From positions 2,524,594 to 2,588,593 of the forward strand of contig ML978124.1 of NCBI GenBank assembly GCA_010015805.1: a stretch of 64,000 bases of DNA, in the 5' to 3' direction. Position 1 is the first letter of the stretch; every line of letters begins with the position of its first letter. The notes under the pieces are model-generated. The model was not told the DNA's origin. It ran no database searches and was given only the letters and a program-made list of their open reading frames with translations. This document shows positions 36,482 to 58,285 of the stretch, piece after piece. The translations under genes were made by a program, and so were the position numbers. The stretch is from Rhizodiscina lignyota. Taxonomy: Eukaryota > Ascomycota > Dothideomycetes > Aulographales > Rhizodiscinaceae.

Positions 36482-36569
36482 TTACGAGATATAGACGCGA
36501 TTATATGAGAAATCGCTTAGAAACGCGTCTGGTGTTCGCGCCAAGCCTCGTGGCCTACCATTTAACGAA
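36482..36569 (-). repeat. Right terminal inverted repeat
   Basis: Reverse complement of the left repeat, 85 of 88 positions identical. Confidence 0.9.
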
Positions 36570-36571
36570 TA

Positions 36572-37488: not shown

Positions 37489-38042
37489 TCATAACTTCGA
37501 CCGGTCAGGATCCTGCTCACCGCCTTTTAATAAACGCTGAAGAGGTTCCTTGATCCATGCAGGCACACCCTCGTCCGTCACCTTGTTCGTTGCTCGCTCC
37601 ACCCATATCTGGATGAAACCGCCCACGGCCTTGACCTGCTCACTTCCTTCTTGGAAGATTCCCACTTCATACATCACACTGCTCTTTCCCATCTTCACGA
37701 CTCTCAGTCCAATGTCCAACATTCCGGGATACTGTGCAGAGCCGAAGTAGTCGCAGTACGTGTTCGCGACCAGGCCGATATACTTCGACTCGGCGGTGCT
37801 GTATCCGCATTTGGTGATGAGATACGAGTTGATGATTGAATCGATCAGCACGCCGTAGACTGGATTATTGATATGATGGAACATGTCATTATCGTTCCTA
37901 AATCGTGTCTCAGTAATGCGATTTGGCGCACGCGACTTAATATTGAATCGCACCATCTTGTCCGATAATCTTCATGATACGGATAATCGCTTCGCTTTCG
38001 TTTCCTTTTTGAAGTCAAGTCCACCCCAAGAGATTGTGCCAT
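37489..38042 (-). CDS. 4HBT-type hotdog-fold acyl-CoA thioesterase
   Basis: Exons are 38042-37954 and 37897-37489, with a 56-nt intron and 165 residues. The joined active-site region YRTRWNDNDMFHHINNPVYG is the 4-hydroxybenzoyl-CoA thioesterase signature (T-R-W-x-D-x-D..H-x-N-N), with the second Asp as probable catalytic residue. It is followed by the hotdog helix and strands YCDYFGSAQYPGMLDIGLRV and AVGGFIQIWVERAT. It would hydrolyse an aromatic or fatty acyl-CoA thioester. The Arg-rich N-terminus is short and not a clear targeting signal. It is head-to-head with the NmrA-like gene and forms the left border of the cluster. Confidence 0.8.
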
Positions 38043-38576
38043 TTTATCAGTTTATGAAATTTTAGAAAATCATAAAAGTATTGTCGTCCTCAACAGTCGA
38101 TCCGGCAGCGGCTCTTGTGAGCCCCACGTTCCGTCGTTGCCTCGGCTTTTCGCGACACCGCCGAACTTGATTATTTTTACAAGCCTTGGGCTTGGAAGCA
38201 ACTGATCATTAAACAGGAGGCAATATAAAAGGCACAAAGTACTAATCGAACATCTAACCTTGTCAGTGCTATCACTGGCCCTCGAGTGAGCTCTACCCCC
38301 TCTCTGCTGCGGAAGAGCGGGAAAATATCTGGATGCTTGTCTTAAACGCAGCTCCTTGGCTCCGGTAACACCCCTGAATCAGGAAGGTATTGTCATTGAT
38401 GGAGCGGATTGCATATCTTGTGCATTTAGTTGTCTCGTTCTGTTTAGCAAGGAGAGGAGACGTGCACTCTCCTTGAGCTCCCTCAACATGAACAGATTGC
38501 GGCTCTCTGATTTCCTTCGTTTCATATCACATTCCCACATTTCCCAGACTCATTCGAAACTTGCACGTATTGAAAG
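38043..38576. promoter_or_regulatory. Divergent promoter 1 (thioesterase/NmrA-like)
   Basis: 534 bp between ATGs. CGG and CCG triplets occur (near 38,150-38,170), but I find no motif clearly shared with the other divergent promoters. Confidence 0.35.
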
Positions 38577-39698
38577 ATGTACAAACTGATCTGCGTCATC
38601 GGCGCAACCGGCAACCAGGGCGGTTCTGTCGCACGACGATTCCTGAAGGATCCTGAGTACCACGTTCGAGGAATAACGCGCAATCCGCATTCACCAGCAG
38701 CACAACAGCTTGCCGAAGTAGGAGTTGAGATTGTGCAAGCAGATCTGGACGATGTGAAGAGCTTGGAGTCTGCATTCGCCGGAGCTCACGTCATATTCAG
38801 TGTCACCAATTTCTGGGAGCCGTTTTTCCGTCCTGATTGTCGCACAAACGCACAAGAGCTTGGAATCAGTTGCAACAAGTACGCTTACAATGTTGAACTT
38901 CAACAAGGAAAGAACATAGCCGATGCTGTTGCCACTACTATTGACTCCCTGGCATCGAATGGCTTTCTTGTTTCCACATTGAGCCATGCGCGGAAGTGCA
39001 GTGGTGGAGCATTTCAGGAAGCGTACCATTTCGATGCAAAGGCGGACGTATTCCCATACTACGTACAAGAACATTACCCAGCGCTGGCAAAGAAGATGTC
39101 ATGCATCCAAACTGGATTCTTCACTTCGAGCTACAAGCTCTTACCAACTGCGTACCTCGCAAAGGTCTGGGTGCCGCCGTCCATCACGTAACAATCTCGG
39201 TCTGTGAAGCTGACAATGTCCCAGCTTCCGGACGATAGCTTTCAAATGAGTTTCACTACCGATCCCGACAAGCCGGTTCCACATCTCGCTGTCAACGCCG
39301 ATACCGGCAATTTCGTCTACGCTGTCGCAAAGATGCCTCCTGGGAAGCAATACATGGCCGAAGGCTCGACATGCAGCTGGAGCGAGTATATTAGGATATG
39401 GGGCAAAGTCACAGGTATGAAGGTCTCGTACAAGCAGATCACCTCGGACGAACTTGTCGCCGTGGTACCGGATAAAGCATTTGGGCGAGAAGTTGCCGAC
39501 ATGTTCTCGTATTCTTCAGATCCTGGGTATGACGGTGGAGTGAACTTGCTCACAGCCAGAGACATTCGCGACGTAAGTCTTCACTTTGCTTTAACGGATT
39601 GTGAACTGACGATGAAGGCTGGCATTGACTGTCCGATGACGAGTCTGGAAGACTGGATGAAGGAAGAAGATTGGAACGCAATACTAATCAATGAATGA
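38577..39698 (+). CDS. NmrA-like NAD(P)-binding protein
   Basis: Exons are 38577-39164, 39210-39572 and 39618-39698. Both introns are 45 nt, and the protein is 343 residues. The Rossmann fold starts at once: MYKLICVIGATGNQGGSVAR with GxxGxxG, then VRGITRNPHS and VQADLDDVKSLESAFAGAHV. The middle has SNGFLVSTLSHARKCSGG and a K-x-x-x-E-x-Y-x-like stretch, and the C-terminal domain includes VSYKQITSDELV and LEDWMKEEDW. NmrA-like proteins are either redox sensors acting on transcription or atypical SDR reductases. Which applies here cannot be told. It is the partner of the thioesterase in pair 1. Confidence 0.85.
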
Positions 39699-40164
39699 TA
39701 TCGGCGCTTGAAATGAAATAAAACGGCTCGTCTACAACTTCGCCGCTCTCGTTATCGCGATATGTCAAGAAGCGGTAACAGCCTCAAGAGTCAAGCTAAG
39801 CTGTTCCACGGCGCGGAGTATTCAATATATGCACAGGGCCACAACAGAATGCAGCGGGAAAGCTGTCGAGCTATCAATTGCTTGGCCTAGCGTCTTTTAG
39901 TCTTCTCCCTCATTCGCTTAAGCGGCGTGCTATCAGCAGTAATCATCATTTCATCTCAAACAAGTTTTCTGGCAATTCAAATCCTCCAACATTGATACAA
40001 CGTTGCCCCAAACCGCCTGCGTTGTATTAATTGGCAGCGCATTTGGAGACAGCTAATCCTTTCTGGTTTCTACATTCGCCACTTGACTTCTTGCTCTCGA
40101 ACTCCTGTTCGCCGCAGTACAATTTTATCCATCCCGGTTCATTAAGCGTACGATGGCGCTCATA
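39699..40164. other. Convergent 3' spacer
   Basis: Lies between the ends of the NmrA-like gene and the P450. No gene is seen. Confidence 0.5.
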
Positions 40165-41947
40165 TCATTGTATCTTGGCCAGCAGCTCGTCGTATATTGA
40201 TGAATCTTCCATCTCTTTCGGCCGATCCACCTCTGCCCTCTCTCGGATCATCTGCGCCGCAGCTTCATTACGCGGCTTGACGGCACACTGGAAGACTGCC
40301 GGTCCAAATACTGGGAAAGCACCCGCTACAGACATTATTAGCCAAATCCATTTTCAACAGGAGTGACAACGTACAATAGCCATCCGGTGGTGGAGAATTT
40401 GGCTTCGGCGTAATGTCAAAAGCCCAGAGAATCCGACTCATTACGATATACAAGCTCGCATCCGCGACATGCCGTCCTGGGCATTCTCTTCGACCAACTC
40501 CGAACGCAAAGTGCTGCCCTCCAGGACTTGCTCCTGGAGATGATCTCGGATCCCTCGGGTCAAGAAATCTCTCCGGCATGAACTTGTCCGGTTCGGGATA
40601 GTACTGCGAGTTCTTGTGGATCGCGTTCACATTTGGAATTACTGTAGCTCCTTTTGGTATCGACTTGCCTCTGTAAACATCTGCCTCGCTTGTGGCATGG
40701 ATGAAAGCTAATGGCGTTGCAGTAGCCCATCTATGTAGCTCGTTGATCACGGCGTTCAAGTACGGCAGCTTCTCTCGGTCTTCCCAGTTTGGTAGACGGT
40801 TACGGCCCACTACTCGATCAATCTCTTTCTGCGCATGCTTCATCTGCTCAGGAAAAAGCACGGCTGCTTTGAAAAACCACTGTAGTGTCGTCGCAGTCGT
40901 TTCTGTACCGGCTGTGATCAGTTCGGCAATCAGATGCGCGTACTCTGTCTCTGATAATTTCGTCCCTTCGTTCTGGAGTACTCGGGCTACGAAACAGTCT
41001 GGTGCAGTGCCATTGCGCACTCGTTCTTTCATTTGTTCATAAAAGACTAGATAGAAGGGCATGATCTGCCGTCGAATCTCAACTGCTTGCTTTCGCCATG
41101 GTGCAAGAGCATCAGGGAGATAGTCAAGGATGGGAATCCAATCAACCAGCCACGCTCCAGGCCGAATGTCTGTACCCATCAGTTGCTGATGCAAAATCTG
41201 GGTTTGAAAAGAGCTCTTACGTGTGAAGAAGTTTTGCATCTTCTTTCCAATTTGTTGAGGAATGAAGGCGTCTGATCGGTCGAATCGGCAGCCCATTCTA
41301 GCTGAAATGTTAATTCCCATAGATCGAATTCGCACAGAAGTGACCCTTACAACATGCTGAACGTCACGCTTCCAGAATATCGAGCGACCTCTTGGAAGAA
41401 GGCGTCCGGTTCATCCAACAGATGCTTCAGCGTACGTCTGCTCTCATACTCTTGGTACGGCAAGAATATCTTTGCATTCTGCATTCCCAAGAAGCCATGG
41501 ATAATTTTTCTATGCTCCTGAGACGGCCATTCAGTCGCTGCTGGAATGAACAAATCAAAGAGTACTTACACGCCATAAATCGCCATATTGCATATTCACA
41601 ATTCTTGCTCCCTCTGTAATGAGCGTAGCCTGGTTCGAAGCTCTCGGTCTTGAACTGTACTTCTGGCCCTTCTTGATGAACAGATCATTGAACGACTCAG
41701 GGCTGTTCAAGACGATGACTGAAGACTGTCCCATCTTGTACGCGAATACGTCGCCGTACTGTTGACTCCATTCTGTGAGTTTAACGTGTAGTAGAGATCC
41801 TCGAAAGTCGAATATGTTGCCAAATATGGGCAGTCCCGGTGGCCCATTGGGAAGGTTCCGTGCTATGTTGCTAGCAATATAGAGCACAAATATGATGAGG
41901 AGGGAAAACAAGATGTAAATCGTAAACTTGGAATTCGAGGTATCCAT
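40165..41947 (-). CDS. Cytochrome P450 monooxygenase
   Basis: Exons are 41947-41570, 41517-41351, 41297-41221, 41169-40375 and 40325-40165, giving 525 residues. The N-terminus is a membrane anchor (IYILFSLLIIFVLYIASNIA) and the proline hinge NLPNGPPGLPIFGN. The I-helix has AELITAGTETTATT (A/G-G-x-D/E-T-T). The K-helix ExxR is NELHRW, PERF is MPERFLD, and the heme loop is FAFGVGRRECPGRHVA with the Cys ligand. The C-terminal exon restores the typical ...FQCAVKPRNEAA ending. It is an ER-bound hydroxylase of the CYP class II type, resembling fungal O-methylsterigmatocystin-oxidoreductase-like P450s. The substrate is probably the cluster's aromatic compound. Paired with the MDR reductase. Confidence 0.92.
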
Positions 41948-42418
41948 TGTGATGTCGATTTTGTGAGTTTGTCCGATTACAGATCAACAGCGGAACAGGT
42001 GGATTTGCAGGTCTGCTTATGATTAACGAGTATGTTCTGATTAATCAAGCCTCTCACACCCATCTCCGATTGTCCGATGATGATACTGAATTCCGTATGT
42101 CATGCATGAAGCATTTTCTTCATTCCGACATTGCTGGTTGGCGGTCGTGCCGCCCTCCGACAATCACCGTTAACCGCCGTGCTCTCTTCAGGACATGAGG
42201 CTCTATCCAGGATTTGACAAAAATGCACGCAGAATTCTCGGGCATGAGTGTTAAGATGTAAATGTTTACGTGATAATCTGGCTTCTGTTTGTGGGTCGCG
42301 ACAAACGTCGGCGCGAGGTGGTACTCCGAGTTATCCTAAATAATGAAACTCGTTGTTTGATACTCCGCAGAAAACACAAAAAAGACTATAGGCATCGCGA
42401 AAGGGCGTATCAGGAAAC
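41948..42418. promoter_or_regulatory. Divergent promoter 2 (P450/MDR reductase)
   Basis: 471 bp between ATGs. Contains a CGG-N5-CCG element at 42142-42152, a spacing used by some Zn2Cys6 dimers. Confidence 0.4.
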
Positions 42419-43539
42419 ATGAAAATGAAAGAGGCACATGTTTCCCCAGACACTAGTGTACAGATTGTCGATAGTGCCGTTCCGCAACCTGGTCCAGAAG
42501 AAGTTCTCATCAAGGTTGTGTGTGCCGGTTGCAACCCGAAAGATTGGAAGTATCCTCATTTTTCGGGGGTTACCATCAATTCGGGGGATGATATCGCTGG
42601 ATTTGTTGAGCGTGTGGGAGAAGAGGTGTACGAATTCAGGCCAGGTGATCGTGTCGCTGCCTTCCATCAAATGAGAGTTGGAGGAGGAGCATTCGCCGAG
42701 TTTGCGATTGCGCCAGCTTCGACGACCTTCCATATTCCAGAGAAAATCTCATTTGAAGAGGTATTCAACTACAATGACAAATATTTGCCGGACTATTGGG
42801 AACTGACATGTGTCAGGCATCAACGGTTCCGCTGGCTGCTCTCACTGCAGCCGTTGCGCTCTATCATAATCTCAAACTTCCACTTCCATGGGAGCCAGCG
42901 AAAGAAAAAATACCACTGCTCATCTACGGAGGTTCGAGTGCGATCGGTTCTTTTGCTATTAAACTCGCTCGCCGCTCGAACATTCATCCCATCATTGCCG
43001 TGGCAGGAAAGAGCAAGGATTATGTCGAATCGCTTCTTGACCCATCCCAGGGAGATGCGGTTATCGACTATCGAGATGGAATTGACGCTGTTGTGTTTGG
43101 TATACAGCAAGCGTTGAAGGCGGCTGATGCTGGATCGGCGTTTCATGCGTTCGACGCAATATCGGAGAAGAATACTTTTCACGCTTTGAGCAAGGCTCTC
43201 GATCCGATCGGACACATTACGTTGGTGCTACTTGAAAGCAATTACACATCAATACCTGAGTCAATACGAACTTCGTTGACGTTTGTTGGCATCGTACACA
43301 CCGGACCGCCGCCTTTAGACCCAAAGCAAGGCGTCCGATATGTTGCTGAAGGGAATGGAAGGGATTTCGGCTTCGTATTCTCTCGATTGATCGGAAGAGC
43401 CATGCAAGAAGGTTGGCTTTCTGGGCATCCTCAGGAGGTCGTTCCTGGTGGGCTTAGTGGGCTGTCCACCGCTCTGAACAATCTGAAGGCAGGAAAGGCA
43501 AATGCTGTTAAATATGTTATCAAGCCAGTTGATACATAG
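42419..43539 (+). CDS. MDR-family quinone/enoyl reductase-like oxidoreductase
   Basis: Exons are 42419-42760 and 42817-43539, giving 354 residues. The GroES-like N-terminal domain reads VLIKVVCAGCNPKDWKYPHF, then GDDIAGFVERVGEEV and FRPGDRVAAF. The catalytic-domain coenzyme site is LLIYGGSSAIGSFAIKLARR, and the end is LNNLKAGKANAVKYVIKP. The catalytic-zinc Cys/His set of alcohol dehydrogenases is absent, as in quinone oxidoreductases and trans-acting enoyl reductases. It would reduce a C=C bond with NADPH in the cytosol. In this context it may act on a ring-fission or quinone intermediate. Confidence 0.85.
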
Positions 43540-43902
43540 AGCAATCAAAATGGGGATTATTTCAACTTCATCTTTGTCACAAACTGGGGCATCGACACGA
43601 CAATCTGAAGACTCCAGTCGCGTCTACTTTACGTCGCATCTGATTGCATCTATGATCACTAACTCTCTTCGATGCGTCTGCAGCCTGTTTTCGATGATCT
43701 ATACGGTTTGTGATTACTACGGAGACTTATCGGGGTGCGGGTTGGTAAGCGTTAACATATGCCCAATAGAATAAGTCAGTCTGAAATGTTCCGATGCTTC
43801 TGAGGCCGACATTAACAATTCTCATTTTGTTCCGACATCGTTTAAATACAATCTGGACGCGTCGATTCCCTATCCTGGCTTTGTCAGTTGACTGCGAATC
43901 TA
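43540..43902. other. Convergent 3' spacer
   Basis: 363 bp between the reductase and flavin monooxygenase stops. Nothing is recognised. Confidence 0.5.
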
Positions 43903-45523
43903 TTATAATCTTGCGACCTCTCCTTGGACGAATTTGTCGAACGCACAATCAGCATCGGCGATAAAGTCAAAGCTGAGCATGTTTCGCTGATACTCCAGGT
44001 TATTCCAGCTAAACACAGTTGGAGTTTGCGTCTCCCAGTTCGTCTGTCCAAGAATTCGGTCCCGCTCGTCACGCCCCGGTCCATCTGGCATGTGGAACAG
44101 CCGCTGGTTGTTGATCGCACCTCGCACATTGACGGTAGTTCGATGCTTGCGAAGTTGCTCGAACATCTTGAGGATATGAGGGATGGAAAGCTTTTCTGGA
44201 ATCTGGCCAGAGGAAGCACTCTTTCCCAGCCGACCAAGAAGATGTCCAAGGATTGCTCCGTCTTCCACGGCCATTGCAGCTCCTTGTGCTTGATAAGGCA
44301 ATGTTGGATGAGATGCATCTCCGATGATCACTACGTTGCCTTTGGTCCATCGAAGAAGTTCGTCATTGTGGCATAGTCGCCATTTGAGCACATGGGATAC
44401 GAGCCCGAGCACATCGGTCAGCCTGGCAGAGAGATCAGTACAAGCATGCAGCTGCTGGAAATTAAAGCTTTACATGGGATCCCATCCAGAAAAGGCACTT
44501 TGCATCTCCTTCACGTCGCCTTGGATTGTGCTGAAACCCGGCGGAAGCGTGTCAGGACAAACTAGGACCAGATTGTACACCGAGCCACCCTTCACCGAAT
44601 AGAGGACCGCGTGGGAATTTGGGCCCATCCAAACATTTGTCTCTGGTGTCTTGATCAAAGCATTGAGCTTCTCATTGTTCAGGCTCTGTAGTTGCTCGAC
44701 AGTGAAGGTGGCACGGTATGCCATGTCCCCAGTCGCCATTGGTGACGCATCATGTTGCAGGAGAAGGCTCCGCGTCTTCGACCACAAGCCGTCTGCACCG
44801 ACCACAACGTCGCCATAAAACTTCTGCCCTGACTTGGTTGTTACGCTCGCCTGGTCTATTGTAAAGTCGACGCTTTCAATTTCCACTCCGAGATGGGTTC
44901 GGACGCCGCGGCGAATGGTCTCGTCATAGAGAAATCGGTGGTAATCGGCACGGTGGATGACGCTATGCACATGTCAGTAATTCAATCCAAAATGCAATTC
45001 AGGACCAATTCATGGCACATACTACCAAGGCGCACCGTAATCCCTCACATATGCCTCGCCTCCAGCTCGTCGGAGCAGATTGCGGCCATCTTTGTAACTC
45101 CGAAGGTTTCCGGCCTGTACAGCGACAGCTCCACTGCTTTGAACTTTGTCATCGACGCCGAGATATCTCAGGGCCCGTACTCCATTTGGAGGTATCTGGA
45201 TACCTGCCCCAATCTGGATCCAATTCAGCTTCAATACTCCGTACTTTATGGCGGAACCGGGAACTGGAAGTATCGTACTGGGAGGATCTCGGGCGTCTTT
45301 TCAAAGACTTGAACTTTCAGACCATTCTGCACGCACGAGAGGGCAGTGGCCAGACCTCCTGCGAGCTTATCAGTGAGGAGTCGAGTTTTTTTTCTCCTTT
45401 GGGCGGAAATGCCTTGGAGATTGTTGCTGCATTGTGGAGGACAGAGACTCGAAATTGTGGGTCTGAGCGGAAGTGGTGTGGGTGCACCTTACCAAGCCCG
45501 GCTCCGATTATGATTACTTCCAT
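43903..45523 (-). CDS. FAD-dependent salicylate-hydroxylase-like monooxygenase
   Basis: Exons are 45523-45493, 45358-45279, 45213-45023, 44962-44474 and 44422-43903, giving 436 residues. Intron 1 is long for this region (134 nt). All three class A flavin hydroxylase motifs are present: MEVIIIGAGLGGLATAL (GxGxxG), VVVGADGLWSKTR (DG motif) and VVIIGDASHPTLPYQAQGAA (GD motif), plus IGAGIQIPPNGVRALRYLG. It best resembles salicylate 1-hydroxylase and 6-hydroxynicotinate monooxygenase relatives. Salicylate hydroxylases decarboxylate and hydroxylate salicylate to catechol using NAD(P)H and O2. The substrate here is inferred. Head-to-head with the FAA hydrolase. Confidence 0.9.
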
Positions 45524-45908
45524 CACTCCTTTCTCAACGGACAGTTCCTTTGAACCATCGGTCATTTCTATATCAGCTTCCATTTCCTCCAGTAGCCCGC
45601 GGCATACCCCACTGTACATTTCAATCCCGGAGACCGGTACCCTTGTTATGCGAGAGACCTAGAAGATGCCAAATCCACCGAGAACCAAGCGAGGCACGGC
45701 AGATGACGGTGTCTCGCTCTTTTGGGTTTCCCATGGATTCTGGGGCTATTGATAGATGACGATGTTCCGCCAATTCCCAAAATTATACGGAGCTTAAAGT
45801 TCATACGCTTCGGAGCAGGATACGCCTTAGTTCGGTATGACTTGAGATCCAAACCAATCTTTCCCTTGTCTTTCAACTTTTTTTCAGCATCAGTCACTAT
45901 TGTCTCCC
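45524..45908. promoter_or_regulatory. Divergent promoter 3 (FMO/FAA hydrolase)
   Basis: 385 bp between ATGs, with a CGG-N3-CCG element at 45628-45636. Confidence 0.4.
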
Positions 45909-47171: not shown

Positions 47172-48301
47172 TTAAGCGGGAGCCGGAATAGGAACATTCG
47201 CATCATTCATTTCAGTAGTCACAAATCCCAACGGAATGTTTGGACCCCACACATACAGACTCTCTGGAGACTCAATCTCTCGACCCCATGGTGTGTCCTC
47301 ATTCACAAGATCACCATCAGCGTAATGCTCAAGAATGTTACCCATTGCATCGAACCTGGAGTATGGAATGAATCAGTGATCTTATCATAGTGCAACTTGG
47401 AACTTGTGGAGAACAGGAGATTGTACCAGTAATCAAATACCTGGCTCCCAAGGACATGCCGTCCAACACCCCAACAGTTTGTCCAGCCCTTGTTCGTGAG
47501 CCAGTCATGGCCAAGGAGCTGATCATCCATGTGTTGTACCTCGAAGCTGGCATGATGAACATGCGCTTTGGATTTAGGGGTGTGTCCGAGAAAGAATGAC
47601 TACAAGACACTCATTGTTAGCTTAAGGCATTCAATTTATAAATCCAAATAACCCACGTGATGATCTGTATATGTCTGTCCCTTGTCAATGTGAAGGAAGC
47701 ATGTTAGATCCTCGTTGGTCTCTGGATTGTACACGCTGTCTGTTACTTTGAGATTGAACGTTGACGTGTACCAGCTCAGCGTTTTCTTGTAATCTGCTGG
47801 CGGAATCATGAAACCGTAATGTCCCAGTTTGTGAATGTGTGACGGGCCGGTTTTCATGCGAACAAACTCGCCCTTTCGTTGCTTTTCAGAAGGGGTGTTA
47901 ATCGATGTCATTGGTTCGGATTTCTCCCCCAATGTTTCCTGTCCGTAGAGTAGTCGAATTTCCACTCCGTTTGGATCTTTCAGTGTCACGACCTTTCCGC
48001 CTCCTGGTTCCTTTGAATCTTTGATGCTCGAAGCAGCTGGCAAGCTACTTGCTCGTTCCAAGTCATCAATAGATTGTACCAGCCAACCTCCTGCCACAAA
48101 ACGTTTTCCTTGCGGGTCGGTGCTCTGCTCCGCGACGTAGACGAAAGGCTGAGGACCTGTCCCTCTATAGTAGACTCGCGAGTCGACTCTTTCCACTTCT
48201 TCTAGCCCAAAATCCTTTAAGAATTTTTCTTCCTTGGCCAGATCTTGGTGACTGTAGTGCACGTATGCAAGACTGTCGAGGTTGATCTTACTGCCACCCA
48301 T
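47172..48301 (-). CDS. Type I extradiol ring-cleavage dioxygenase (VOC superfamily)
   Basis: Exons are 48301-47657, 47599-47427 and 47355-47172, giving 333 residues. Two VOC modules are seen: the N-terminal one (LAYVHYSHQDLAKEEKFLKD) and a catalytic C-terminal one. The three metal ligands of type I extradiol enzymes are visible: His in KLGHYGFMIP, His in HVHHASFEVQ and Glu in NILEHYADGD. Supporting residues include the His/Tyr region HHSFFLG and FDYW. The known reaction is Fe(II)/O2 cleavage of a catechol next to its hydroxyls (catechol 2,3-dioxygenase type). Such meta-cleavage enzymes are common in bacteria but seldom described in fungi. The ATG at 48301 is chosen over an upstream GTG. Confidence 0.88.
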
Positions 48302-48904
48302 TGTCGGCTGGATGCGGAGTTCGGGGGTTACTACTCGATTGGGAATCGTACACGTGACGGGCACCGATCGATCGTTGATGGATTTGCGGGTTGATGCAAA
48401 CGACTGCAGGAAACTGTCACGATTTCCGGCCCAGATAATCGGCGGTACTGACTCTTTTACACCGGGCAGCGTGCAGCTGTAGTGGTTGAGCCGTACGTCA
48501 GCCTTTACCCAAATTGATCAAGATCCGCGAAGCACCGAGGAGAGCCGCGCGGAGGGTGCGGGAGGATGAGTCTGGAGTACAGACAGTTGCTCGCAACCTA
48601 ATATGCCGGTGGATTTTGATGCTTTCATATCTTTTTGATTTGATTTCAGAAATATTAGTAAGATTTGCAGCCCGAACTGGTTGTTGATTGACAGGGGAAG
48701 GGCGTCGGAACTGCGAACTGCTAATTTCTTACTAGGATACGAGGATCACGCTGATTAGCGAATTCAGGAGGCTATTGTGTGGACAAGCCACAGTGGTGCA
48801 GGTGTGCGGAGTGACCAGCCTTCAATAAATCCAGCGAAATTGCTCAATTGAAAGGTTTTTCGGTTTTTCAATTGATGACGTCCGAGCGAGACTTTGTACT
48901 CTGA
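48302..48904. promoter_or_regulatory. Divergent promoter 4 (extradiol dioxygenase/phenol-hydroxylase-like)
   Basis: 603 bp between ATGs. It contains several CGG/CCG triplets and an inverted repeat close to the plus-strand start. Confidence 0.4.
48845..48874. promoter_or_regulatory. 9-bp perfect inverted repeat, operator candidate
   Basis: CAATTGAAA and TTTCAATTG arms (48845-48853 and 48866-48874) with a 12-base spacer, ending 30 bp before the ATG at 48905. It could be a regulator site or a 5' UTR hairpin. Confidence 0.4.
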
Positions 48905-50993
48905 ATGGTCACCCAAGCGACACAATTGATAATGCCAATGGCGTCTTCAGTTCCAGTTTTAATTGCAGGAGGAGGCCCAGTTGGTCTCGTTGCAGCATAC
49001 ACACTTGCGCATCATGGAATCCGATGCGTGCTCATTGAGCGAAACGAGACGACGACAAAATGGCCGAAGATGGATATCACTAATGTTCGCTCGATGGAGA
49101 TACTTCGTGGTCTTGGTTTGGCAGATGAGCTCAGAGAACAAGGTATGTTGTCGACTGAAGGAATTCTGCGAAGGACTGTGAGGCGCGGCCGTCTGCGGCC
49201 GCATCAACTGAACGACACACAGGAGTCGGTCAAGACTTTTCTTTCGACGTTATCATCAGTACAGGATTGGGTGGAAAATGCGAAGATATTACAAGATGGG
49301 TGTGTCTTAATTGCGACGGAGTAAGACTTTGATAGCTGACGGCTTATTTTCAGAAATTGCAATCGCCAAATGAATGGCGGAAGATTATTAAACAGCAAAA
49401 CGATGGGTCAATGCCGCGCGAACCTTACCAGCGGTGTTCCCAGGCCATTTTTGAAGCATGGCTAAAAGTGAAGATTGAAGCGAATGAATTGATTGAAAGC
49501 CACTGGAGCACGAAGCTTGTTGATGTGCAAGAGGAGGCTGGTAAAGTTTTTGCGACGGTTCAGGAAGGCGCGACTGGTTCAACACGAACAATCGAAGCTC
49601 AGTATCTGATAGGATGCGATGGTGGAGGGAGCATAACTAGAAAGAAGATGGGACTTGGCCTCACTGGAGGCCCTCTGTAAGTGATCCGCCTGGTGGTACA
49701 ATGATTGCGCCCACACTCACACTGACTCTGCTGAAGCCCCCTCGCAATGGGTCTGGTCCACTTCAAATCCCGTGATCTTACTCGACTTCATAAACAAGGT
49801 CAATTCTGGCATATCTTCTTCACTCATGGCGGTGTCATCATTTCGCAAGACGAAATCGACACGTGGACAGTGCATCTCCCTGTACCTCTAGACTTTGACA
49901 TCAAGACGCTCGATCCGGAAAAGCATATCTTCCAAGTACTTGGTGGACAAGGAGATTCGTATGAGATTGACGTCGATGAGATATTGGTGTCGAGTTCTTG
50001 GAGACCGAATAACGCGATCGCGGATCGGTATCGGTCGGACGGAGGGCGGGTATTCATTGCTGGTGATGCTTGTATGAAATTCATTTGACTATCAAGGCGC
50101 AATGTCAGAAAGCTAACATGTAGCTGCTGAAAGGTCACCAGAACATTCCCACCGGCGGATATGGGATGAATACAGGCCTTGCTGATGCATATGATATATC
50201 CTGGAAGCTCGCAATGGTTTTGAAAGGTGCCGGCGGGGAAGACTTGCTGGAATCATACGAAGTTGAGAGGCGCCCTGTTGCGATACGAAATGTCCAGCGT
50301 GCAGCGGAGCACATGAGTGTCCACCAAGGCTATGCCCAAAAGGCAATGGAAGCTGGATCCGAGGTTATGCTTAGCAACTCGGAGGAGGCCCAAGCAATCA
50401 AAGCGCTCACCAAGGAGCATGTCGAAACCAATGATGGAGAGAACAAGGACCACGGAATAGAGTTGGATTATAGACTACGGCCATCTCCAGTGATTCCAGT
50501 CGAGGTTGGAGTAAAAGAACCAGAATGGACACGGCAGGCATATGCTCCTTCAACAATACCTGGATCTCGAGCACCACATGTATTTCTCAAAGACGGTTCC
50601 ACAAGCATCTTTGACCTCCTCAGTAAGGACTACACGGTTGTCGATTTTTCGCAAGAGGGCTCGATTTCTTTGCAATTGGAGAAATTGGCGCGACAAGGAG
50701 GATTCCCACTTGCTCGAGTGCATCTACCAAACGAAGAGCATGTGAGGAAAGTTTGGGAACGTGATGTTGTCCTCGTTCGGCCTGACTATTACGTCGGTTG
50801 GCGATCCGATTCGAAAGAGAACTACGACGATCAACAGTTGGATGATGTTCTATCAAAGGTATTTGGCAAAGACTCCTCCGGCAAGGCGAAGAGAGAACAC
50901 ATAAATGGAGACCACATTGTATTTGCAGGAGCTCAGAGGTCATTTAACCAAGATGAAGAGAAAGTAGAAAAGTTGGCCGAGTTTCAACGTTAG
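48905..50993 (+). CDS. FAD-dependent phenol-hydroxylase-like monooxygenase
   Basis: Exons are 48905-49142, 49223-49299, 49354-49676, 49737-50071 and 50134-50993, giving 610 residues. FAD motifs: VPVLIAGGGPVGLVAAYTLA (GxGxxG), YLIGCDGGGSITRK (DG) and GRVFIAGDACHQNIPTGGYG (GD, read across intron 4). The final ~160 residues (SIFDLLSKDYTVVDFSQEG to GDHIVFAG) form the thioredoxin-like C-terminal domain of phenol 2-monooxygenase and MhpA-type enzymes. It would ortho-hydroxylate a phenol to a catechol, the substrate class of the divergently transcribed extradiol dioxygenase. The acceptor of intron 4 (GAAAG) is not the first AG after the branch site. Confidence 0.9.
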
Positions 50994-51192
50994 AGAATAC
51001 GAGTGAACTCGTAGTTCTTTCCAAGTATTTCCAAGCATCAGGAGACAGTTGTATGTGGTGGAGTGCTCTGACGAGGCATCAAGCATTTTAAGAGGAAATG
51101 ATCATCCGAGTCGGTCAAAGTAGAGTTCGAACTGAAGCGTTCAGTCAATATGTCCATCACATCTGTTTGTTGTCAGCAAATCGAGATATTTT

Positions 51193-53530
51193 CTATTCTT
51201 GCAGCGTTGGCAGCGAACCGAGAGTAGCAGTTCCGACATCCCAGTATTCCGAGATGCGCGCCACGGTTTCACGAATCATTTCTCTCTCAAGTTCTCCTCG
51301 AGCAGGAGTTGGTGCTGCAAAAGTCGCTTGCAGATAGGCACCATATGGACCAAGGAATGCGCAGACTTGGAAAGGCTGTATAGTGATGCAATACTCTGGC
51401 CGCCATATTCGAATCGCTCGGAGAACAGGATTGAGCGTACGTCGGTACCTTGGAGCGTATGAGAGATTGATTGTTCCGCTTGCTGAGACTGGACGACGTG
51501 AATTGTTTGGATGAGCCTCTGATGGTGATTCTCGTGTCGGCTCGCTTGCGGAGTTTTCATTGCTCGCATCCATGACGTATGTAAATGCACTGCCTCTGTC
51601 AATCAAATGGAAGGACTGGAGAGATAAGGAACGATTAACGTTACCCTTGAAGCATTATATGCATTGCGATGATCCAATTATCATGACCCACAGACTCCTC
51701 CTCAAACAATAATGTGTCGGAGCTCACATGGAATTGGGCTGGGATGCTCATTGCAAAGCAATGGATCACATCTCCGAGATCGCGCATCTCCATGGAACAG
51801 CCTTTGCCTTTGAGTGACATCTCATGGCTGCAAATCATAAGTTGATTTGCAACGAGATACCACGCATGCGGGTTGAGATTGGTAGATGCTTTTAATTGCT
51901 TCCATGAACTCAGGACGTCGTCATCGAGAAATGCGGAAGTGCGTGGAGTTTCTGAATACCAACTTTCATCTGTGCTTGGAAGTAACACATGCATCCGACC
52001 GCGGTCAATGGTGAGTGGGCGGCACCTTATGACTGACGCAAAGTTGTCGCACTCTACGGCGGCCCACCAAGCTCGGCGAAGTTCCTCTCGGCGAACCCAT
52101 TCGATCGCAGGGAGAGATTGAGTCTTTGATCCTCGCAAATCCTCATCAATGGTATTGAGTGAAAGACTGTACGCTGCACGGACGCAGTTTCCAGCAAGAA
52201 ACCAAGCCTTTCCGCCTGGTGCGCAAGCCAGCCAGAAGAATGCAGCCAACAGAGAGCCGTGGAGGAACGTGAGGGATGGTGTGTCCATTTCGGCATACAT
52301 CAGAAGCCGATTGATGAGTAGCCCTGACTGCCGTGCAAATAGGCGGCCTCTTTTCTTTCGCGGGATTGCTGAAAATATTGGAAGATTTGAGAATCGAGCT
52401 GATAGTGCCATCATTCCGTAAATGACGAGTGCATCCTCGATGGGAAGTGTCGGTTTGTCGTCTGCAATACCCAGGAGTTCTGGGAGGCGACTCTGGTATT
52501 TTGGTCGATTGATTATGGGCACGAAGGCGTGGATCTTCTCAAAGTATGTTTGGATTCTGTGATAAATATCAGAGGGATTGGCGAGAGGGGAAGGAATGGG
52601 CTCACAAAGCACGCGCAACAGAAGCATTCACCATGAGAGTAACGTTTGTTTCCATCTCTTCATCATCCAGTTCCCCAATTGAGTGATCGATGTGGTGTGA
52701 ACTGCTGATCTGTTAGTATCCTGATAGTGAAGATGTACCGCCGACTACCTTGACATATACTTGCTGCTCTGTCGGCTTGTTTCGCTGCTGTCGCTACCAT
52801 TCATGGCGGAAAGCAAATTGGGGAAGCCAGGGCTCGGCAAAGACATGCCGAATGTCTCTGAATTTGAGAGTTCTGGAAATAAATCACCATCCGTGGGAGA
52901 CCACGAGAATCCGGCCGCGAAGTCTGGTAGACTGGGGCTTTGCTGTACATCTCCGGGCCCTCCAGATTCTTGTATCAGCCAGTTGCTTGATCTTTGAAGT
53001 CCGTAATACATGTCGAGGACATTCTTTTGAGGTTGTATCGTAGTCTGATCTGGTTGAGACTGAGGGTAAAAGCCAGTGTGCGTGTCGCCCACAGCATTCT
53101 GAGCGATCGAAGGACCGGCATCCTGGATCTGGATTTCTCCAGAAGACTTGCCATCAGCTTCACATGTCTGTGTCACCAGGCTTGTCCCATTCGTGTCTCC
53201 GAGCGTGTGTGCTTCAGAACTTCCTGGAGAGCTTTGTTCGGATGTGTCACGCTCTAGCGTTACGCGTCGTCGCTTTTCTGGCGGTCTGGCTGATGTTTCC
53301 ACTGTTGGTAGCCTGCGTGTCGTTGGAAACACGCACAAATTCCCAGTCCGCATGCAAAGAGAGCAGATTGGGCGCTTCATGTCACATTTTGTCTTTTTTC
53401 GTTTGCAAGCTTCACAGGCGCGATGCGGGAGAATTGTCGCTCGAACTCCCTCTGTCGTGCTGACAAGTCCGTACCGACCGTTCATGTCTTGCCGCGGACC
53501 CGCTGAAAAGGGTACAAATATCGCTTCCAT
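51193..53530 (-). CDS. Zn2Cys6 transcription factor, probable cluster regulator
   Basis: Exons are 53530-52749, 52704-52606, 52556-51645 and 51595-51193, with introns of 44-49 nt and 731 residues. The zinc cluster HRACEACKRKKTKCDMKRPI continues CSLCMRTGNLCVFP, with canonical spacing at about residues 39-66. A Ser/Pro/Gln-rich linker follows, then a PF04082 domain: TYFEKIHAFVPIINRPKYQ, GSLLAAFFWLACAPGGKAWF and REELRRAWWAAVECDNFASV. It is a nuclear activator or repressor. Its position, 199 bp from the phenol-hydroxylase-like gene and next to the MFS pump, makes it the natural candidate regulator of the 37-58 kb cluster. Confidence 0.9.
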
Positions 53531-54305
53531 GATGGACTGTGACCGATTGAGAGTCCTCTAGCCCATGGCCTTACGAAGACGGCGGTTCAATAGAGACGGG
53601 AGTGGATGGTGATTAATGAAAGTGTAGGTCTTTTTGCGGGGACGCCAAGATCTGGGGTGTTCAGGCCGGGGTTCGTGTCCGCCCTGCTTTCCTCCTGCAA
53701 TCCGCCACATTTCCCGAGCGATCCCGAGGATTACATATAAATTGATAATCTCGTGCCTTTTAAATGTCATCTTTTGACTATGCGATACTGTCGAAATGAA
53801 TGCACTTGCGCTAGAGCCATCTTCGTCCCAATTCGATTTCCGCACAATGCTGCAACTGCTGCCGCCCGCTTTCTTCGCCAAGATTAGCACTTCTCTTGGA
53901 GCGGACATGGATTTCTTATGATTCTTTGAGACTATTCATCTCTTAGTGGCTGTGCAAAGTGCTGTGGTGCATTGAGGAACATGTAGCTTGCGACTATCTT
54001 CGAGATGGAGAGCCTCCGCCCTCATAACCAGTGTGTTTGAGACCGAATCGACCCAACCAGAGCAAGTCTATCTCATAGACTAAATGATAGAGATGGTTTC
54101 AACAACTAATAGACACTGCAGATAGTATCACGATAGAACGGAATACCGATCCCGATTGAAGCTACATGGTAAATTCCAGACGTAACGGTAATGTGCCGGC
54201 TGCTAGCTTTTCTATCCCTCTATTCTTTATTTCTTTTCCCCTAGCACTCACATACTTACAATATCAACCTGATCCTCTCTATCTTCAATCGAAGATTTCT
54301 TCTAT
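53531..54305. other. Upstream region of the regulator
   Basis: A minus ORF with a genuine ATG at 53908 (to 53558, 116 codons, M-S-A-P-R-E-V-L) has no recognisable domain and may be the leader of the regulator gene. Nothing else is supported. Confidence 0.35.
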
Positions 54306-56182
54306 TCAAGTCCGTTCAAGACCTTTGCCTCTTGTGAAGAGCGCCGCAACGAAGCCGATAAAAGCGAAACCAGAAGACGCGATGAATGCCAGTCTGATAC
54401 CCTCGTAGTACACCATTTGTGCAGACATTCGCACTTCTAGCGGCAAATCGCGGAGTGCTGCAACTGAATGTCGAACTTCGTCAATGACCTGTACAAGCGA
54501 GCAAGAAAGGTTAGCTATTTCGCGCCTCCATGTCGTATGAGTGTATGGAAGGGGGAAACGATGAAAGGCGCACTCTCCATTTATTTGGAATCTCTCCGAG
54601 AGCCACAGGCAAGCGGCTTTTAAGCACGTTCTGAGTAATTGCGGAGGTTACTGCAACGCCCCAGACGGTACCAAGAGAACGAATAAGGTACACTGTTGAA
54701 GAAGAAACAGCGTGGTCTATTCGGCCTATCAGTCAAATTTCCTTGGAACAAAGAGAGTTTTTTGCTGACCGGAATGATCAAATATAGCCAGGAACGTAAA
54801 CAATGTGCCGGGATAAGCCATTCCTTGCCCAAGATTGGCAGGAAAGAGGTACACGATGTACTTCCAATCCGCATCCCGGAAACTGAGAGAAGCAGCCAGA
54901 GCATTGCCAACCAGCATGAGGAAGGCCCCAACCCTGACCAGCACTGCAAGCTTCCCCCAGCGGGACATGACTACTCCAGCAATCACGCCGCCGACTGGTG
55001 TCGCGAGCGAAGGAATCACAAGTCTACTTCCAGCCTTGGTAGCAGACTCGAGAAGAACGACTTGGAAGAACAAGGGAATGAGGAAGAGATACTGCTGAGA
55101 ATTAGCATGCGTGTTTCATTTTCAGGCTTCAAAGTCGAGCACTCACCGCATATGCAGCCATTCCGAAGAAAACGTTTGCCAATTGTGTGGCAACTGGCTG
55201 CTTACCATGAAGCATCCGCAGCGGGATGACCGGCATCGCCTTTGTCTTTGCTTCTACAACGAGGAACAGTGCGAGCAACACCACACTTCCGACCAAGGTC
55301 GATATCACCCACGGGCTACTCCAAGGAAGTTCGTTCCCCCCAAGGCTCAGAGCAACAAGCTGAGAGGACAAACTCAAGATCAGCAGCGTAGCTCCAGCGA
55401 TATCAAGCTTCCCCCAGACTGAGCGTTTCTGGTCACCGTCGGGAGCAACACCCGTGAGATTCTCCGGGGACTTTATAGCAACATGGCCAATACCCAGGGC
55501 GAGAAGAGAGATTGGAACTTGCAGCAGGAAGCACCATCGCCATCCAATTGTGTCTGCAATCGCACCGCCAACGCTGGCTCCGCATATGCTTCCGAAACCG
55601 AACAAGACGTTCTGCACTGCTTGGTAAGCCCCTCTCTTCCTGAACGGAATCAGGTCGCTGTTGACGATCGTGGCCACTGTCATTAAGCCGCCGCCTCCGA
55701 CGCCCGTCAATGCTCTCATTGTATTGAGTAGCCAGATGTATTTTGCTAGTCCGCAGCCCAGACATCCAATCATAAAGGTGAGTGTAGCGATGAAGAAGCA
55801 GATGCGTCGACCGAAGATGTCCGAGAAGCGGCCATAAAGAGGCTGGAACGCCGTATACGTGATTAGATATGAGGTAGTCAGCCACGACGCAGTATTTGCG
55901 GCCGAGAACTCTGAAGCGATGAGGGCGTACGTCGACGCTGTGATTGTGCCATCAAAACCCGAAAGGAAGACATTTGCGAATATTGCTGCTCCCATAATCA
56001 GTCCAGCTTTGAAATCAAATCTGAAGTTATTCAGCATACATACCGATCTCAATCCAAATAAATCCTTTCGGAGCCTTCCACCGCTGTTGATCTTCCAAAA
56101 GCGTCGTGGTTTCTCCCACGTCTTGTTCCTCGTCTTGATCGGATGATGACCCTGTCAACAACCTATGAGAGAATTGATCCAT
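54306..56182 (-). CDS. MFS transporter (DHA2, 14-TM)
   Basis: Exons are 56182-56044, 55988-55147, 55094-54770, 54716-54574 and 54488-54306, giving 543 residues. The N-terminal tail has the DETTxLL-like VGETTTLLED, then KAPKGFIWIEI enters helix 1. Motifs are FLSGFDGTITASTYALIASE, TTSYLITYTAFQPLYGRFSD with IFGRR (motif A), and TGVGGGGLMTVATIV. Later helices include LFLIPLFFQVVLLESATKAG and AFIASSGFAFIGFVAALFT. The acceptor after GGGAG at 55989 is preferred because it removes an extra segment in helix 1 and gives a normal 55-nt intron. It is a probable plasma-membrane exporter or importer of the cluster's aromatic. Head-to-head with the arylsulfotransferase-like pseudogene. Confidence 0.87.
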
Positions 56183-56555
56183 TAAAATGTACGAAGAGAG
56201 GCCATTCTCAATTTCTTTTTGTTTCGAAAAGGGATTTTGATTGACTGTGCAAATTTCTGCAACGAGCATCGTCATAAGCGATTGCCCCTCGTTTGGCTGC
56301 ATAACGCAACCTACACGTGGAATTACGCCACACTCTCCGATCGGAGCAGGTGAAGCTATAAAGAGCTCCAACTGTGCATCTTGGGCGAGGGACCAAGATA
56401 GCTCTTCATCCGACGGCCATTCTGCTGCTGTCTGAAAACTGCCTCTTTCTTGCGCATATTTGAACAGAGCGCAGAAACATCAACAAGGTCAATGTACCCT
56501 TCAATCCCCATGGCGACCGTAATGTCTTCTAACGGGGCTAGAAGTATCGTCCGTC
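56183..56555. promoter_or_regulatory. Divergent promoter 5 (MFS/arylsulfotransferase-like)
   Basis: 373 bp between ATGs, continuing the head-to-head organisation of the cluster. Confidence 0.35.
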
Positions 56556-58285
56556 ATGAAGAATATCCTTGTGCATTTATCTGCAGGCATTGCGTGCTTG
56601 CCGTTGGCTTTCGCAGACTGGCAATTCAAGTCCAGGCCCGATTTGGCACCACCGCGCCTGAATATAACAATTCCCGTTGCTTCAGATGCGGATAAAGGGT
56701 ATCTCTTTGTCGCGCCCTTTGCAGGCTTTCCTGACAAGCCTGGAGAAACATATGGCCCTCGCCAAGCGGCACCGTACAGCTTCCGCGACAATGGGAACTT
56801 GGTCTGGTCTGGATACGGGTATTACTCTATTTGGGCAACCAACTTTTAAAAGGCACGCTGGAATGGCAAAGATGTGCTCTTTTCTTTCGAAGGCGATCAT
56901 AGTGTGTTATATCTGTACAGCATGTATGTTGTTAATATGGCCTAACTGAATGCAACAGATGCTCTGCACGGGCATGGTCATGGGCACACCACGATCTTGG
57001 ACCAGCACTATGAGACTATCCGGGAGCTGCGAGCTGGCAATCACAAGCTCACGGATAAACATGAGTTTCATGTCATCAACGAGAAAACTGCATTGATTCA
57101 GATATATCAACCGGTGCCTCGAGATCTCTCCAAATGGGGTGCATCACCAGAGCAGCAATAGATTGTGGATGCCATCTTCCAAGGTCTGCTCTGTCGTCTG
57201 TCAATCAAGTTCGATCGGATCACTGACTCATCGCAGAACTCGATATTGAGACTGGCAAGCTTCTCTTTGAGTGGTCAAGCCTGGAACATGTGCTCCCGGA
57301 CGAGGCAGTTCTTCCCCTCAACCCCGGCCAAGCTGGTTCAGGCTACAACTCTTCCGATGCTTGGGACTACTTTCATATTAACTTGGTCGACAAAGACAAA
57401 CATGGTAATTATCTCATCTCCGCTCGTGACGCTTGCTCCGTTCACAAGATCAACGGGACCAGCGGCGAGATCATCTGGCGCCTGGACGGAAAGAAATCCG
57501 ACTTTATGTTGGGGCGTGGCGTCAAGTTTTGCTTCCAGCATCACGCACGGTTTGTCTCCTATGAAGGAGATGAAGAGATCATCTCACTTTACGATAACTC
57601 TGCACATGGCACTGAAGACGGTCGCGGTCGCGAAGTCCACACGGCTTCGACGTCTTCTGGGAAGATTATCAAGCTCAACACTCGAACTTGGGAGGCTACG
57701 CTCGTACAAAGCTTCTACCCACCGGATGGTTTGCGTTCGAAATCCCAGGGAGGCACACAGCTTCTCCCTGGCGGTAATGTTCTTGTAAACTGGGGGTCCG
57801 AAGGTGCCGTCACAGAGTTCCGAGCGGATGGTACCCCGATCTTCCATGCCTATATGGACTCTGGCTTCCTCGGCGAGGGCGTTGAGAACTATCGTGCATT
57901 CAAGTACAATTGGATTGGCTTGCCGAACGAGCCGCCTGCGATTGCGTACCTCGGGCATGGCAATGATGTCGCAGCGTACGTATCGTGGAACGGAGACACG
58001 GAGACTGCGGCTTGGAGATTCTATTCTGTGATTGGAGACTTGGGCGCAAGAGAGTTTCTCGGCGAAGCTAACAGGACGAGCTTTGAGACTTTGCTCTCTC
58101 TGAAAGGACTGCGAGTTGAAAAGATAGTTGCTGATGCATTGTCTGCTGACTGGAAAGTCCTGGCAACGACTGGTATCGCGACACTTGAACAGGACGTTGA
58201 ACCCGTGGAGCTGTTGCCTGGCTCTGCAGAAGAAAAGGAGCAATTTATTATCAAGCCTGGCGGGATCCGCACAGATCTGAGGTAA
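56556..58285 (+). pseudogene. Arylsulfotransferase (ASST)-like secreted protein with two in-frame stops
   Basis: The ATG at 56556 opens a signal peptide (ILVHLSAGIACLPLAFADWQ) and ASST-like blocks: GYLFVAPFAGFPDKPG, ARWNGKDVLFSFEGDH, LHGHGHGHTTILDQHYETIR, FQHHARFVSYEGDEEIISLY and TQLLPGGNVLVNWGS. Introns are inferred around 56,891-56,959 and 57,179-57,231. Two stops interrupt otherwise conserved sequence: TAA at 56847-56849 (CAA expected after ATNF) and TAG at 57159-57161 (TGG expected in EQQ-IVDAIFQ). Both are single C-to-T or G-to-A changes. The family includes arylsulfate sulfotransferases and fungal proteins of unknown role. Confidence 0.8.

What the first reader, a model, noticed from the sequence alone, without database searches (positions are those of the whole stretch)
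37489..58285. Candidate fungal meta-cleavage (extradiol) aromatic catabolism cluster
The block holds two class A flavin hydroxylases (salicylate-hydroxylase-like and phenol-hydroxylase-like), a VOC extradiol dioxygenase with all three metal ligands visible, an FAA-family hydrolase, a P450, an MDR reductase, a hotdog thioesterase, an NmrA-like protein, a Zn2Cys6 regulator and an MFS pump. Fungi mostly open catechols by intradiol (ortho) cleavage. A clustered meta-type route (phenol or salicylate to catechol, extradiol cleavage, then FAA-family hydrolysis) would be unusual. If salicylate is the substrate, the cluster could disarm plant defence. The family assignments are seen in the sequence; the pathway and order are inference.
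Basis: partly seen in the sequence, partly recalled or inferred. Interest (0 to 1): 0.85.

Follow-up and report, generated by a model that had tools for sequence, protein, structure and literature searches.

The report
Fungal extradiol aromatic-ring-cleavage gene cluster
A fungus carries a compact set of genes that looks built to add hydroxyls to an aromatic ring, open it beside the hydroxyls (a route well known in bacteria but not worked out in fungi) and split off pyruvate, and similar gene sets recur in other fungi and in bacteria.

The parts
37489..37956 (-). TE: hotdog thioesterase-like protein, 155 aa, single exon; divergent with NmrA
   Evidence: PF03061 3.5e-10; model. Membership in the set by position only.
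38577..39698 (+). NmrA-like NAD(P)-binding protein, 338 aa, 3 exons
   Evidence: PF05368 8.6e-41. An NmrA-like gene also lies in the C14 paralogue cluster and, by my reading of the ORF, in the nearest bacterial locus L044.
40165..41947 (-). cytochrome P450, 525 aa, 5 exons; divergent with MDR
   Evidence: PF00067 3.5e-81. A P450 (34% identical over 312 aa) also lies in the C5 paralogue cluster.
42419..43539 (+). MDR-type reductase, 354 aa, 2 exons (quinone or enoyl reductase role is a guess)
   Evidence: PF08240 2.4e-13
43903..45565 (-). FMO1: class A flavin hydroxylase, 454 aa, 5 exons; decarboxylating 1-hydroxylase type; divergent with FAH
   Evidence: PF01494 1.2e-20; nearest solved 8gsm '4-hydroxybenzoate decarboxylase' 1e-93, then 8x38 decarboxylative vanillate 1-hydroxylase; a homologue lies beside VOC and PH in L033
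45909..46838 (+). FAH: fumarylacetoacetate hydrolase family (FAHD1/HpcE-like), 281 aa, 3 exons; predicted acylpyruvate hydrolase
   Evidence: PF01557 1.1e-65; nearest solved 8sky (4.3e-53) and HpcE 1gtt (1.9e-51)
47172..48301 (-). VOC type I extradiol dioxygenase, 333 aa, 3 exons; ligands H161, H231, E282; second shell H215, H263, Y272; divergent with PH
48302..48904 (.). shared divergent intergenic region VOC/PH (603 bp), possible bidirectional promoter
   Evidence: position; motif search inconclusive
48905..50993 (+). PH: class A flavin phenol hydroxylase, 610 aa, 5 exons, with C-terminal Rng_hyd_C domain
   Evidence: identical to deposited P0241; PF01494 3.5e-70, PF21274 2.7e-13; nearest solved RebC, 2,4-dichlorophenol 6-monooxygenase, 2-hydroxybiphenyl 3-monooxygenase
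51193..53530 (-). Zn2Cys6 transcription factor, 730 aa, 4 exons
   Evidence: PF00172 2.6e-8, PF04082 2.8e-16; homologous stretches (27% over 449 aa, 45% over 55 aa) upstream of VOC in L033
54306..56182 (-). MFS transporter, 552 aa, 5 exons
   Evidence: PF07690 1.3e-41

Best explanation
A catabolic extradiol (meta) cleavage cluster. FMO1 removes the carboxyl of a 4-hydroxybenzoate-type acid and puts a hydroxyl in its place, giving a hydroquinone (inferred from family). PH adds a hydroxyl next to an existing one, giving a 1,2,4-triol (inferred). VOC binds Fe(II) or Mn(II) by H161/H231/E282 and cleaves the ring beside the diol (catalytic residues and fold shown, substrate inferred). If the third hydroxyl is para to one diol hydroxyl, the product is a 2,4-dioxo acid (acylpyruvate), which the FAH protein hydrolyses to pyruvate plus a three-carbon aldehyde acid (inferred). 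P450 and thioesterase feed in or trim the substrate, MDR and NmrA-like proteins reduce quinones or enals, MFS moves substrate or waste, and the Zn2Cys6 protein switches the set on (all inferred). The chemistry is that of the bacterial 2,4,5-trihydroxytoluene step of dinitrotoluene breakdown, applied to natural aromatics.
Against: No activity or expression data. FAH is not always linked: none found on the 64.5 kb L033 contig that holds VOC, FMO1 and PH, and none near the C2 paralogue. Flavin hydroxylases are numerous in this genome (71 exon matches to FMO1), so their nearness alone is weak. The four core proteins (VOC, PH, FMO1, FAH) miss every NCBIfam cut-off in the rows shown, so no exact function can be read off; FMO1's best NCBIfam model is 3-hydroxybenzoate 6-monooxygenase. 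No dehydrogenase for the predicted three-carbon product is in the block. DntD and DntG sequences were not compared. Catechol 2,3-dioxygenase activity is on record in other fungi (PMC12366324, passage).
Confidence: 0.58

Rival explanations
1. Catechol meta cleavage: FMO1 makes catechol from salicylate, PH makes catechol from phenol, VOC opens catechol and FAH or other enzymes finish it.
Against: FMO1 is far closer to decarboxylating 4-hydroxybenzoate 1-hydroxylase than to salicylate hydroxylase. No semialdehyde dehydrogenase, alpha/beta hydrolase, hydratase or aldolase among the ten models. FAH-type acylpyruvate hydrolases do not fit 2-hydroxymuconic semialdehyde (general knowledge).
Confidence: 0.15
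2. A biosynthetic or tailoring cluster: the dioxygenase opens the ring of a secondary metabolite and the product is kept, not burned.
For: A ring-cleaving dioxygenase has been recruited to fungal biosynthesis (AlfB, PMC12105029, passages); P450, MDR, NmrA and MFS are common in such clusters (general knowledge).
Against: No polyketide or peptide synthase, terpene synthase or methyltransferase among the ten models, and no synthase-sized ORF among the nine of 300 aa or more up to 37000 (introns can hide such genes, and these ORFs were not given to Pfam). Many bacterial relatives sit in operon-like rows with FAH, some with acyl-CoA synthetase.
Confidence: 0.15
3. A variant of the fungal gentisate(-like) cluster in which the cupin gentisate dioxygenase is replaced by the VOC enzyme.
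For: The Scedosporium gentisate cluster has MFS, P450, dioxygenase, a 4-hydroxybenzoate 1-hydroxylase-like monooxygenase, FAH and Zn2Cys6 factor (PMC8283699, passages, section 11 part 1): the same set apart from the dioxygenase and PH. FMO1's best NCBIfam model is the gentisate-forming 3-hydroxybenzoate 6-monooxygenase, below cut-off. No gentisate dioxygenase found in this genome by TIGR02272.
Against: Orthology of the shared genes was not tested. TIGR02272 is a bacterial-type model searched exon by exon and passes its cut-off in none of 14 control genomes, so a miss is weak. A VOC enzyme that takes gentisate is not known to me.
Confidence: 0.12

Closest known systems
2,4,5-trihydroxytoluene oxygenase DntD plus bifunctional isomerase/hydrolase DntG (Burkholderia 2,4-dinitrotoluene pathway)
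   Same: Monooxygenase, then extradiol opening of a 1,2,4-triol, then isomerase/hydrolase, ending in pyruvate and propionyl-CoA (enzyme roles from PMC10602510 passages; that DntB is a class A hydroxylase and DntG FAH-type is recalled). Two listed fungal relatives carry the name trihydroxytoluene oxygenase, and so does a gene noted in a Scedosporium genome paper (PMC5716253, passages).
   Different: Fungal, intron-containing, no nitroarene dioxygenase; sequences of DntD/DntG were not compared here.
Bacterial FMO-VOC-FAH loci (e.g. Burkholderia multivorans plasmid NZ_CP143553.1, Microvirga ossetica NZ_CP016618.1)
   Same: Same three core families side by side; over the relative loci VOC is 35-42% and FAH 26-43% identical.
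   Different: MhpA-like hydroxylase and acyl-CoA synthetase instead of PH, FMO1 and P450; function of these operons is not established as far as I know.
Fungal gentisate cluster (Scedosporium)
   Same: MFS, P450, 4-hydroxybenzoate 1-hydroxylase-like FMO, FAH, Zn2Cys6 factor.
   Different: Cupin gentisate 1,2-dioxygenase replaced by a VOC extradiol enzyme, plus PH, MDR, NmrA and TE (a quinone oxidoreductase beside the Scedosporium cluster was left out of it by its authors).
Type I extradiol dioxygenases XylE (1mpy), homoprotocatechuate 2,3-dioxygenase (1f1x), BphC (1han)
   Same: Two-module VOC fold, 2-His-1-Glu site, second-shell His/His/Tyr.
   Different: 16-23% identical in the 50 rows of the structural alignment; far below equivalog cut-offs.
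Ceratocystidaceae CDO3 (class III LigB-type extradiol dioxygenase)
   Same: A fungal extradiol dioxygenase linked to phenolic breakdown (PMC8896014, passages).
   Different: Another family (subunit B domain IPR004183, like 4,5-DOPA dioxygenase), not VOC.

Membership tests
Type I (VOC) extradiol dioxygenases | 2-His-1-Glu metal ligands | tested here: met
   H161, H231, E282 invariant in 33 of 33
Type I (VOC) extradiol dioxygenases | second-shell His, His and Tyr (BphC H195, H241, Y250; numbering recalled) | tested here: met
   H215, H263, Y272 invariant in 33 of 33
Type I (VOC) extradiol dioxygenases | two-domain extradiol fold | tested here: met
Type I (VOC) extradiol dioxygenases | ring cleavage of a catechol in vitro | not testable with these tools
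   needs protein
catechol 2,3-dioxygenase / HpaD / BphC equivalogs | curated NCBIfam cut-off | tested here: not met
   58.4, 51.7 and 50.3 bits against 320, 321 and 366
salicylate 1-hydroxylase (for FMO1) | TIGR03219 cut-off | tested here: not met
   122 against 446 bits (model of bacterial enzymes); nearest solved chains are decarboxylating 1-hydroxylases
decarboxylating 4-hydroxybenzoate 1-hydroxylases (for FMO1) | closest full-length sequence match among solved class A hydroxylases | tested here: met
   8gsm 1e-93 over residues 16-451; activity not tested
complete catechol meta pathway | semialdehyde dehydrogenase or hydrolase, dienoate hydratase, aldolase in the cluster | tested here: not met
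   not among the ten models; elsewhere in the genome not searched
fungal gentisate cluster | cupin gentisate 1,2-dioxygenase | tested here: inconclusive
   none among the ten models; TIGR02272 finds none in the genome, but it is searched exon by exon and passes its cut-off in 0 of 14 control genomes
fungal gentisate cluster | MFS, P450, 4HBA 1-hydroxylase-like FMO, FAH, Zn2Cys6 factor together | tested here: met
   against the list in PMC8283699; by family, orthology not tested
trihydroxytoluene oxygenase pathway | homology of VOC to DntD and FAH to DntG | not tested
   reference sequences not at hand; only names of relatives
FAHD1/HpcE-type FAH enzymes | PF01557 domain with NYxxHxxE and acidic metal site | tested here: met
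   PF01557 1.1e-65; NYQKHVNE seen in the sequence, motif recalled; HpcE 1gtt 1.9e-51

The most novel reading that the evidence does not exclude
Ascomycetes run a complete extradiol route for 1,2,4-trihydroxybenzenes (4-hydroxybenzoate-type acid to hydroquinone to hydroxyquinol-type triol, opened by a VOC dioxygenase, then FAH cleavage to pyruvate). [quoted passage not shown] The ring-opening enzyme entered fungi once, perhaps from bacteria, and has since spread into several parallel hydroxylase-VOC-FAH modules (four VOC lineages in this one genome).
Probability: 0.3. Interest if true: 0.75.

Novelty: new variant of a known kind. Interest (0 to 1): 0.55.

Why it matters
[quoted passage not shown] Here is a concrete candidate gene set with its own regulator whose core recurs in other fungi. 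It makes the question directly testable, gives a common fungal enzyme family (796 relatives, 120 of them listed, the named ones fungal) a proposed partner set, and would add a second lower pathway for lignin-type aromatics in ascomycetes.

Tried and rejected
Shared regulator motif: spaced CGG/CCG triplets (63 patterns) in the four divergent intergenic regions. Three patterns occur in three of the four regions, a number that 1.5% of 200 shuffles reach. The best one, CGG-N7-CGG, occurs 6 times in three of the four and in none of four 3'-3' controls, but 23 of 300 shuffles do as well and it is absent from TE/NmrA. Inconclusive. No 8-mer is common to all four regions.

PH tree: I expected VOC-linked PH proteins to cluster. 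Among 119 of the 120 listed PH relatives (those of 500 aa or more) the label is not clustered (13 changes; 204 of 500 shuffles as low). All 14 linked rows do lie in one subfamily of 84 rows; 'not linked' only means not detected.

L033 looked like a bacterial locus with VOC, FMO1 and PH. Its matches to VOC, FMO1 and PH are broken by stops or gaps that look like introns, and it carries a Zn2Cys6 gene, so I treat it as a fungal contig binned in a MAG. Its genome's FAH matches are on other contigs, which counts against a universal VOC-FAH link.

Viral contigs: one weak relative among 31 pattern matches, not followed. Salicylate catabolism in Aspergillus terreus: no extradiol or glyoxalase term in the paper's text (PMC7842363). 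Phenol degradation in Scedosporium: genes of catechol meta cleavage were annotated, but the authors found no overexpression of a catechol 2,3-dioxygenase gene and could not amplify it; they cite catechol 2,3-dioxygenase activity in Fusarium and Graphium (PMC12366324, passages). The 'extradiol dioxygenase' beside the biruloquinone genes is Memo-like (PMC8161216). AlfB is a fungal extradiol enzyme in biosynthesis; the passages seen do not give its fold. Telomere repeats: none in the window.

Paper searches behind 'not characterised': (open-licence papers only).

One shared value (1331 bp) was dropped as too short to hold both genes.

Full report
WHERE IT IS. The VOC and PH proteins of the window are identical over full length to deposited Rhizodiscina lignyota proteins (P0001; P0241). 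The window is G000:C4:2524594-2588593, and the deposited contig is 2588593 bases long, so the window is the end of a scaffold. R. lignyota is a dothideomycete, order Aulographales. No TTAGGGTTAGGG was found in the window.

ANATOMY. I spliced gene models by hand (one search failed). Ten intact models fill 37489-56182. The first eight form four divergent pairs in a row: TE and NmrA, P450 and MDR, FMO1 and FAH, VOC and PH. A Zn2Cys6 regulator and an MFS transporter follow. Pfam supports the assignments (for nine of the ten models and the neighbour at 59039-60307, a pyridine-nucleotide oxidoreductase; for the regulator). Membership of TE, NmrA, P450, MDR and MFS rests mostly on position.

PARALOGUES IN THE SAME GENOME. 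The genome has four VOC loci (eight exon matches). Beside the window's, C5 has a class A flavin hydroxylase, P450, a GH43 gene, FAH (9 kb away) and a fungal regulator; C14 has FAH (0.2 kb away), flavin hydroxylase, esterase, NmrA-like and AMP-ligase genes; C2 has a flavin hydroxylase 6.5 kb away but no FAH. Thus 4 of 4 VOC loci have a class A flavin hydroxylase within 10 kb and 3 of 4 an FAH. Flavin hydroxylases are common in this genome (71 exon matches to FMO1), so the FAH count carries the weight. I count ten FAH gene loci among 13 matches, a lower bound. On that count the chance that 2 or more of the 3 other VOC loci lie within 10 kb of an FAH is about 1e-4; the 10 kb limit was chosen after the fact. 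Intradiol dioxygenases are present as well: four loci over the cut-off. TIGR02272 finds no gentisate 1,2-dioxygenase, a weak negative, since it passes its cut-off in none of 14 control genomes.

BACTERIAL RELATIVES. Of these 80 (L033 included), 55 hold an FAH within the locus, 41 a PH-like hydroxylase, and 38 both an FAH and a flavin hydroxylase, by tblastn at 1e-6 with the window's proteins. Loci differ in length, so misses may be due to short contigs. No matched control set of random loci was run. I looked at four annotated plasmid records. In Burkholderia multivorans the order is hydroxylase, VOC, FAH, acyl-CoA synthetase in one row; Microvirga has FAH (opposite strand), hydroxylase, VOC, acyl-CoA synthetase. 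A B. cenocepacia plasmid has VOC between two FAH genes with acyl-CoA dehydrogenases and a distant hydroxylase, and a Streptomyces plasmid has a hydroxylase of another family and no FAH. In a tree of 37 fungal sequences and 46 of the 79 other loci all fungi lie on one side of a branch (SH-aLRT 99; quick method), with the window, C5, C14 and C2 enzymes in different fungal branches (C2 has a long, unsure branch). The bacterium next to them is Sphingomonas tagetis, whose locus reads ligase, second VOC, FAH, flavoprotein reductase, NmrA-like, MhpA-like hydroxylase, hydrolase, VOC (my reading of the ORFs; only VOC and FAH were scanned). The tree fits a single entry into fungi but has no outgroup, so direction is not shown.

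WHAT THE HYDROXYLASES SAY. FMO1's best solved relative is 8gsm, named 4-hydroxybenzoate decarboxylase by its depositors (1e-93, residues 16-451), then 8x38, decarboxylative vanillate 1-hydroxylase (1.1e-67). Tropone 2-monooxygenase (4.6e-53) and 6-hydroxynicotinate 3-monooxygenase (3.6e-42) follow, then a chain named probable salicylate monooxygenase (4bk2, 2.5e-35) and salicylate hydroxylase 6bz5 (1.8e-26). On NCBIfam the best model is 3-hydroxybenzoate 6-monooxygenase (224 of 459 bits); salicylate monooxygenase scores 122 of 446. So para-hydroxylation or replacement of a carboxyl fits better than salicylate to catechol. A monooxygenase in the Scedosporium gentisate cluster was likewise placed with 4-hydroxybenzoate 1-hydroxylases (PMC8283699, passage). 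PH is nearest to RebC, 2,4-dichlorophenol 6-monooxygenase and 2-hydroxybiphenyl 3-monooxygenase; the last two hydroxylate next to a phenol (general knowledge). It narrowly misses the NCBIfam subfamily PRK06126, 'hypothetical protein' (440.7 of 445 bits).

WHAT FAH SAYS. FAH is nearest to 8sky and to FAHD1/HpcE-type enzymes, which act on acylpyruvates and related oxo acids (general knowledge). Extradiol cleavage of plain catechol gives 2-hydroxymuconic semialdehyde, which is not an acylpyruvate and needs other enzymes that the block lacks. Cleavage of a 1,2,4-triol beside the hydroxyl that is para to the third hydroxyl gives a 2,4-dioxo acid, which is. That is my main reason to prefer a hydroxyquinol-type substrate. 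The bacterial dinitrotoluene pathway uses trihydroxytoluene oxygenase and a bifunctional isomerase/hydrolase (PMC10602510, passages). I could not compare its sequences.

COMPARISON AND NOVELTY. By family the set shares MFS, P450, decarboxylating-type FMO, FAH and Zn2Cys6 factor with the fungal gentisate cluster but has a VOC enzyme and PH where that has a cupin dioxygenase. The Scedosporium survey looked for dioxygenases already reported in fungi; its classes were intradiol, gentisate and homogentisate (section 11 part 1). A 2022 paper says the meta pathway has not been characterised in fungi and discusses a LigB-type enzyme, not VOC (PMC8896014, passages). Against too strong a claim of novelty, catechol 2,3-dioxygenase activity was reported in Fusarium and Graphium, and a Scedosporium transcriptome study annotated meta-cleavage genes but could not amplify the dioxygenase gene (PMC12366324, passages). 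In the ten paper searches made I found no characterised fungal VOC extradiol pathway; most subscription papers are not in that library. I rate it a new variant of a known kind: each family is known, and the pathway in fungi is not.

LIMITS. No expression or activity data. Gene order and substrate are inference. FAH is not always linked to VOC. The regulator motif test was inconclusive, and VOC-linked PH proteins are not clustered within their subfamily.

Noticed in passing
window 56556-58285 (+): Arylsulfotransferase gene (PF14269) with in-frame stops in its first half; looks like a pseudogene. Four other loci of the family match in the genome.
   Followed up: partly
window 29126-30521 (+): A fumarylacetoacetase proper (PF09298 and PF01557) about 17 kb from the VOC gene, outside the block; possible tyrosine/homogentisate gene.
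   Followed up: no
window 32001-38000 and 62001-64000: Sharp AT-rich tract (24% GC at 34001-36000) just before the block, and 34% GC at the scaffold end, perhaps mutated repeats.
   Followed up: no
   Followed up: yes
P0265, P0268, P0285, P0290, P0293: Trichoderma PH relatives fused to a PF02522 domain, 853-875 aa (that PF02522 is Antibiotic_NAT is recalled).
   Followed up: no
G000:C12:303690-310056: Intradiol dioxygenase next to an FMO1 paralogue and a PH-like piece: possibly a parallel intradiol cluster in the same genome.
   Followed up: no
L046, L051, L054: Microcystis genomes carry a VOC relative (39% identical) with no FAH or flavin hydroxylase match in the locus.
   Followed up: no
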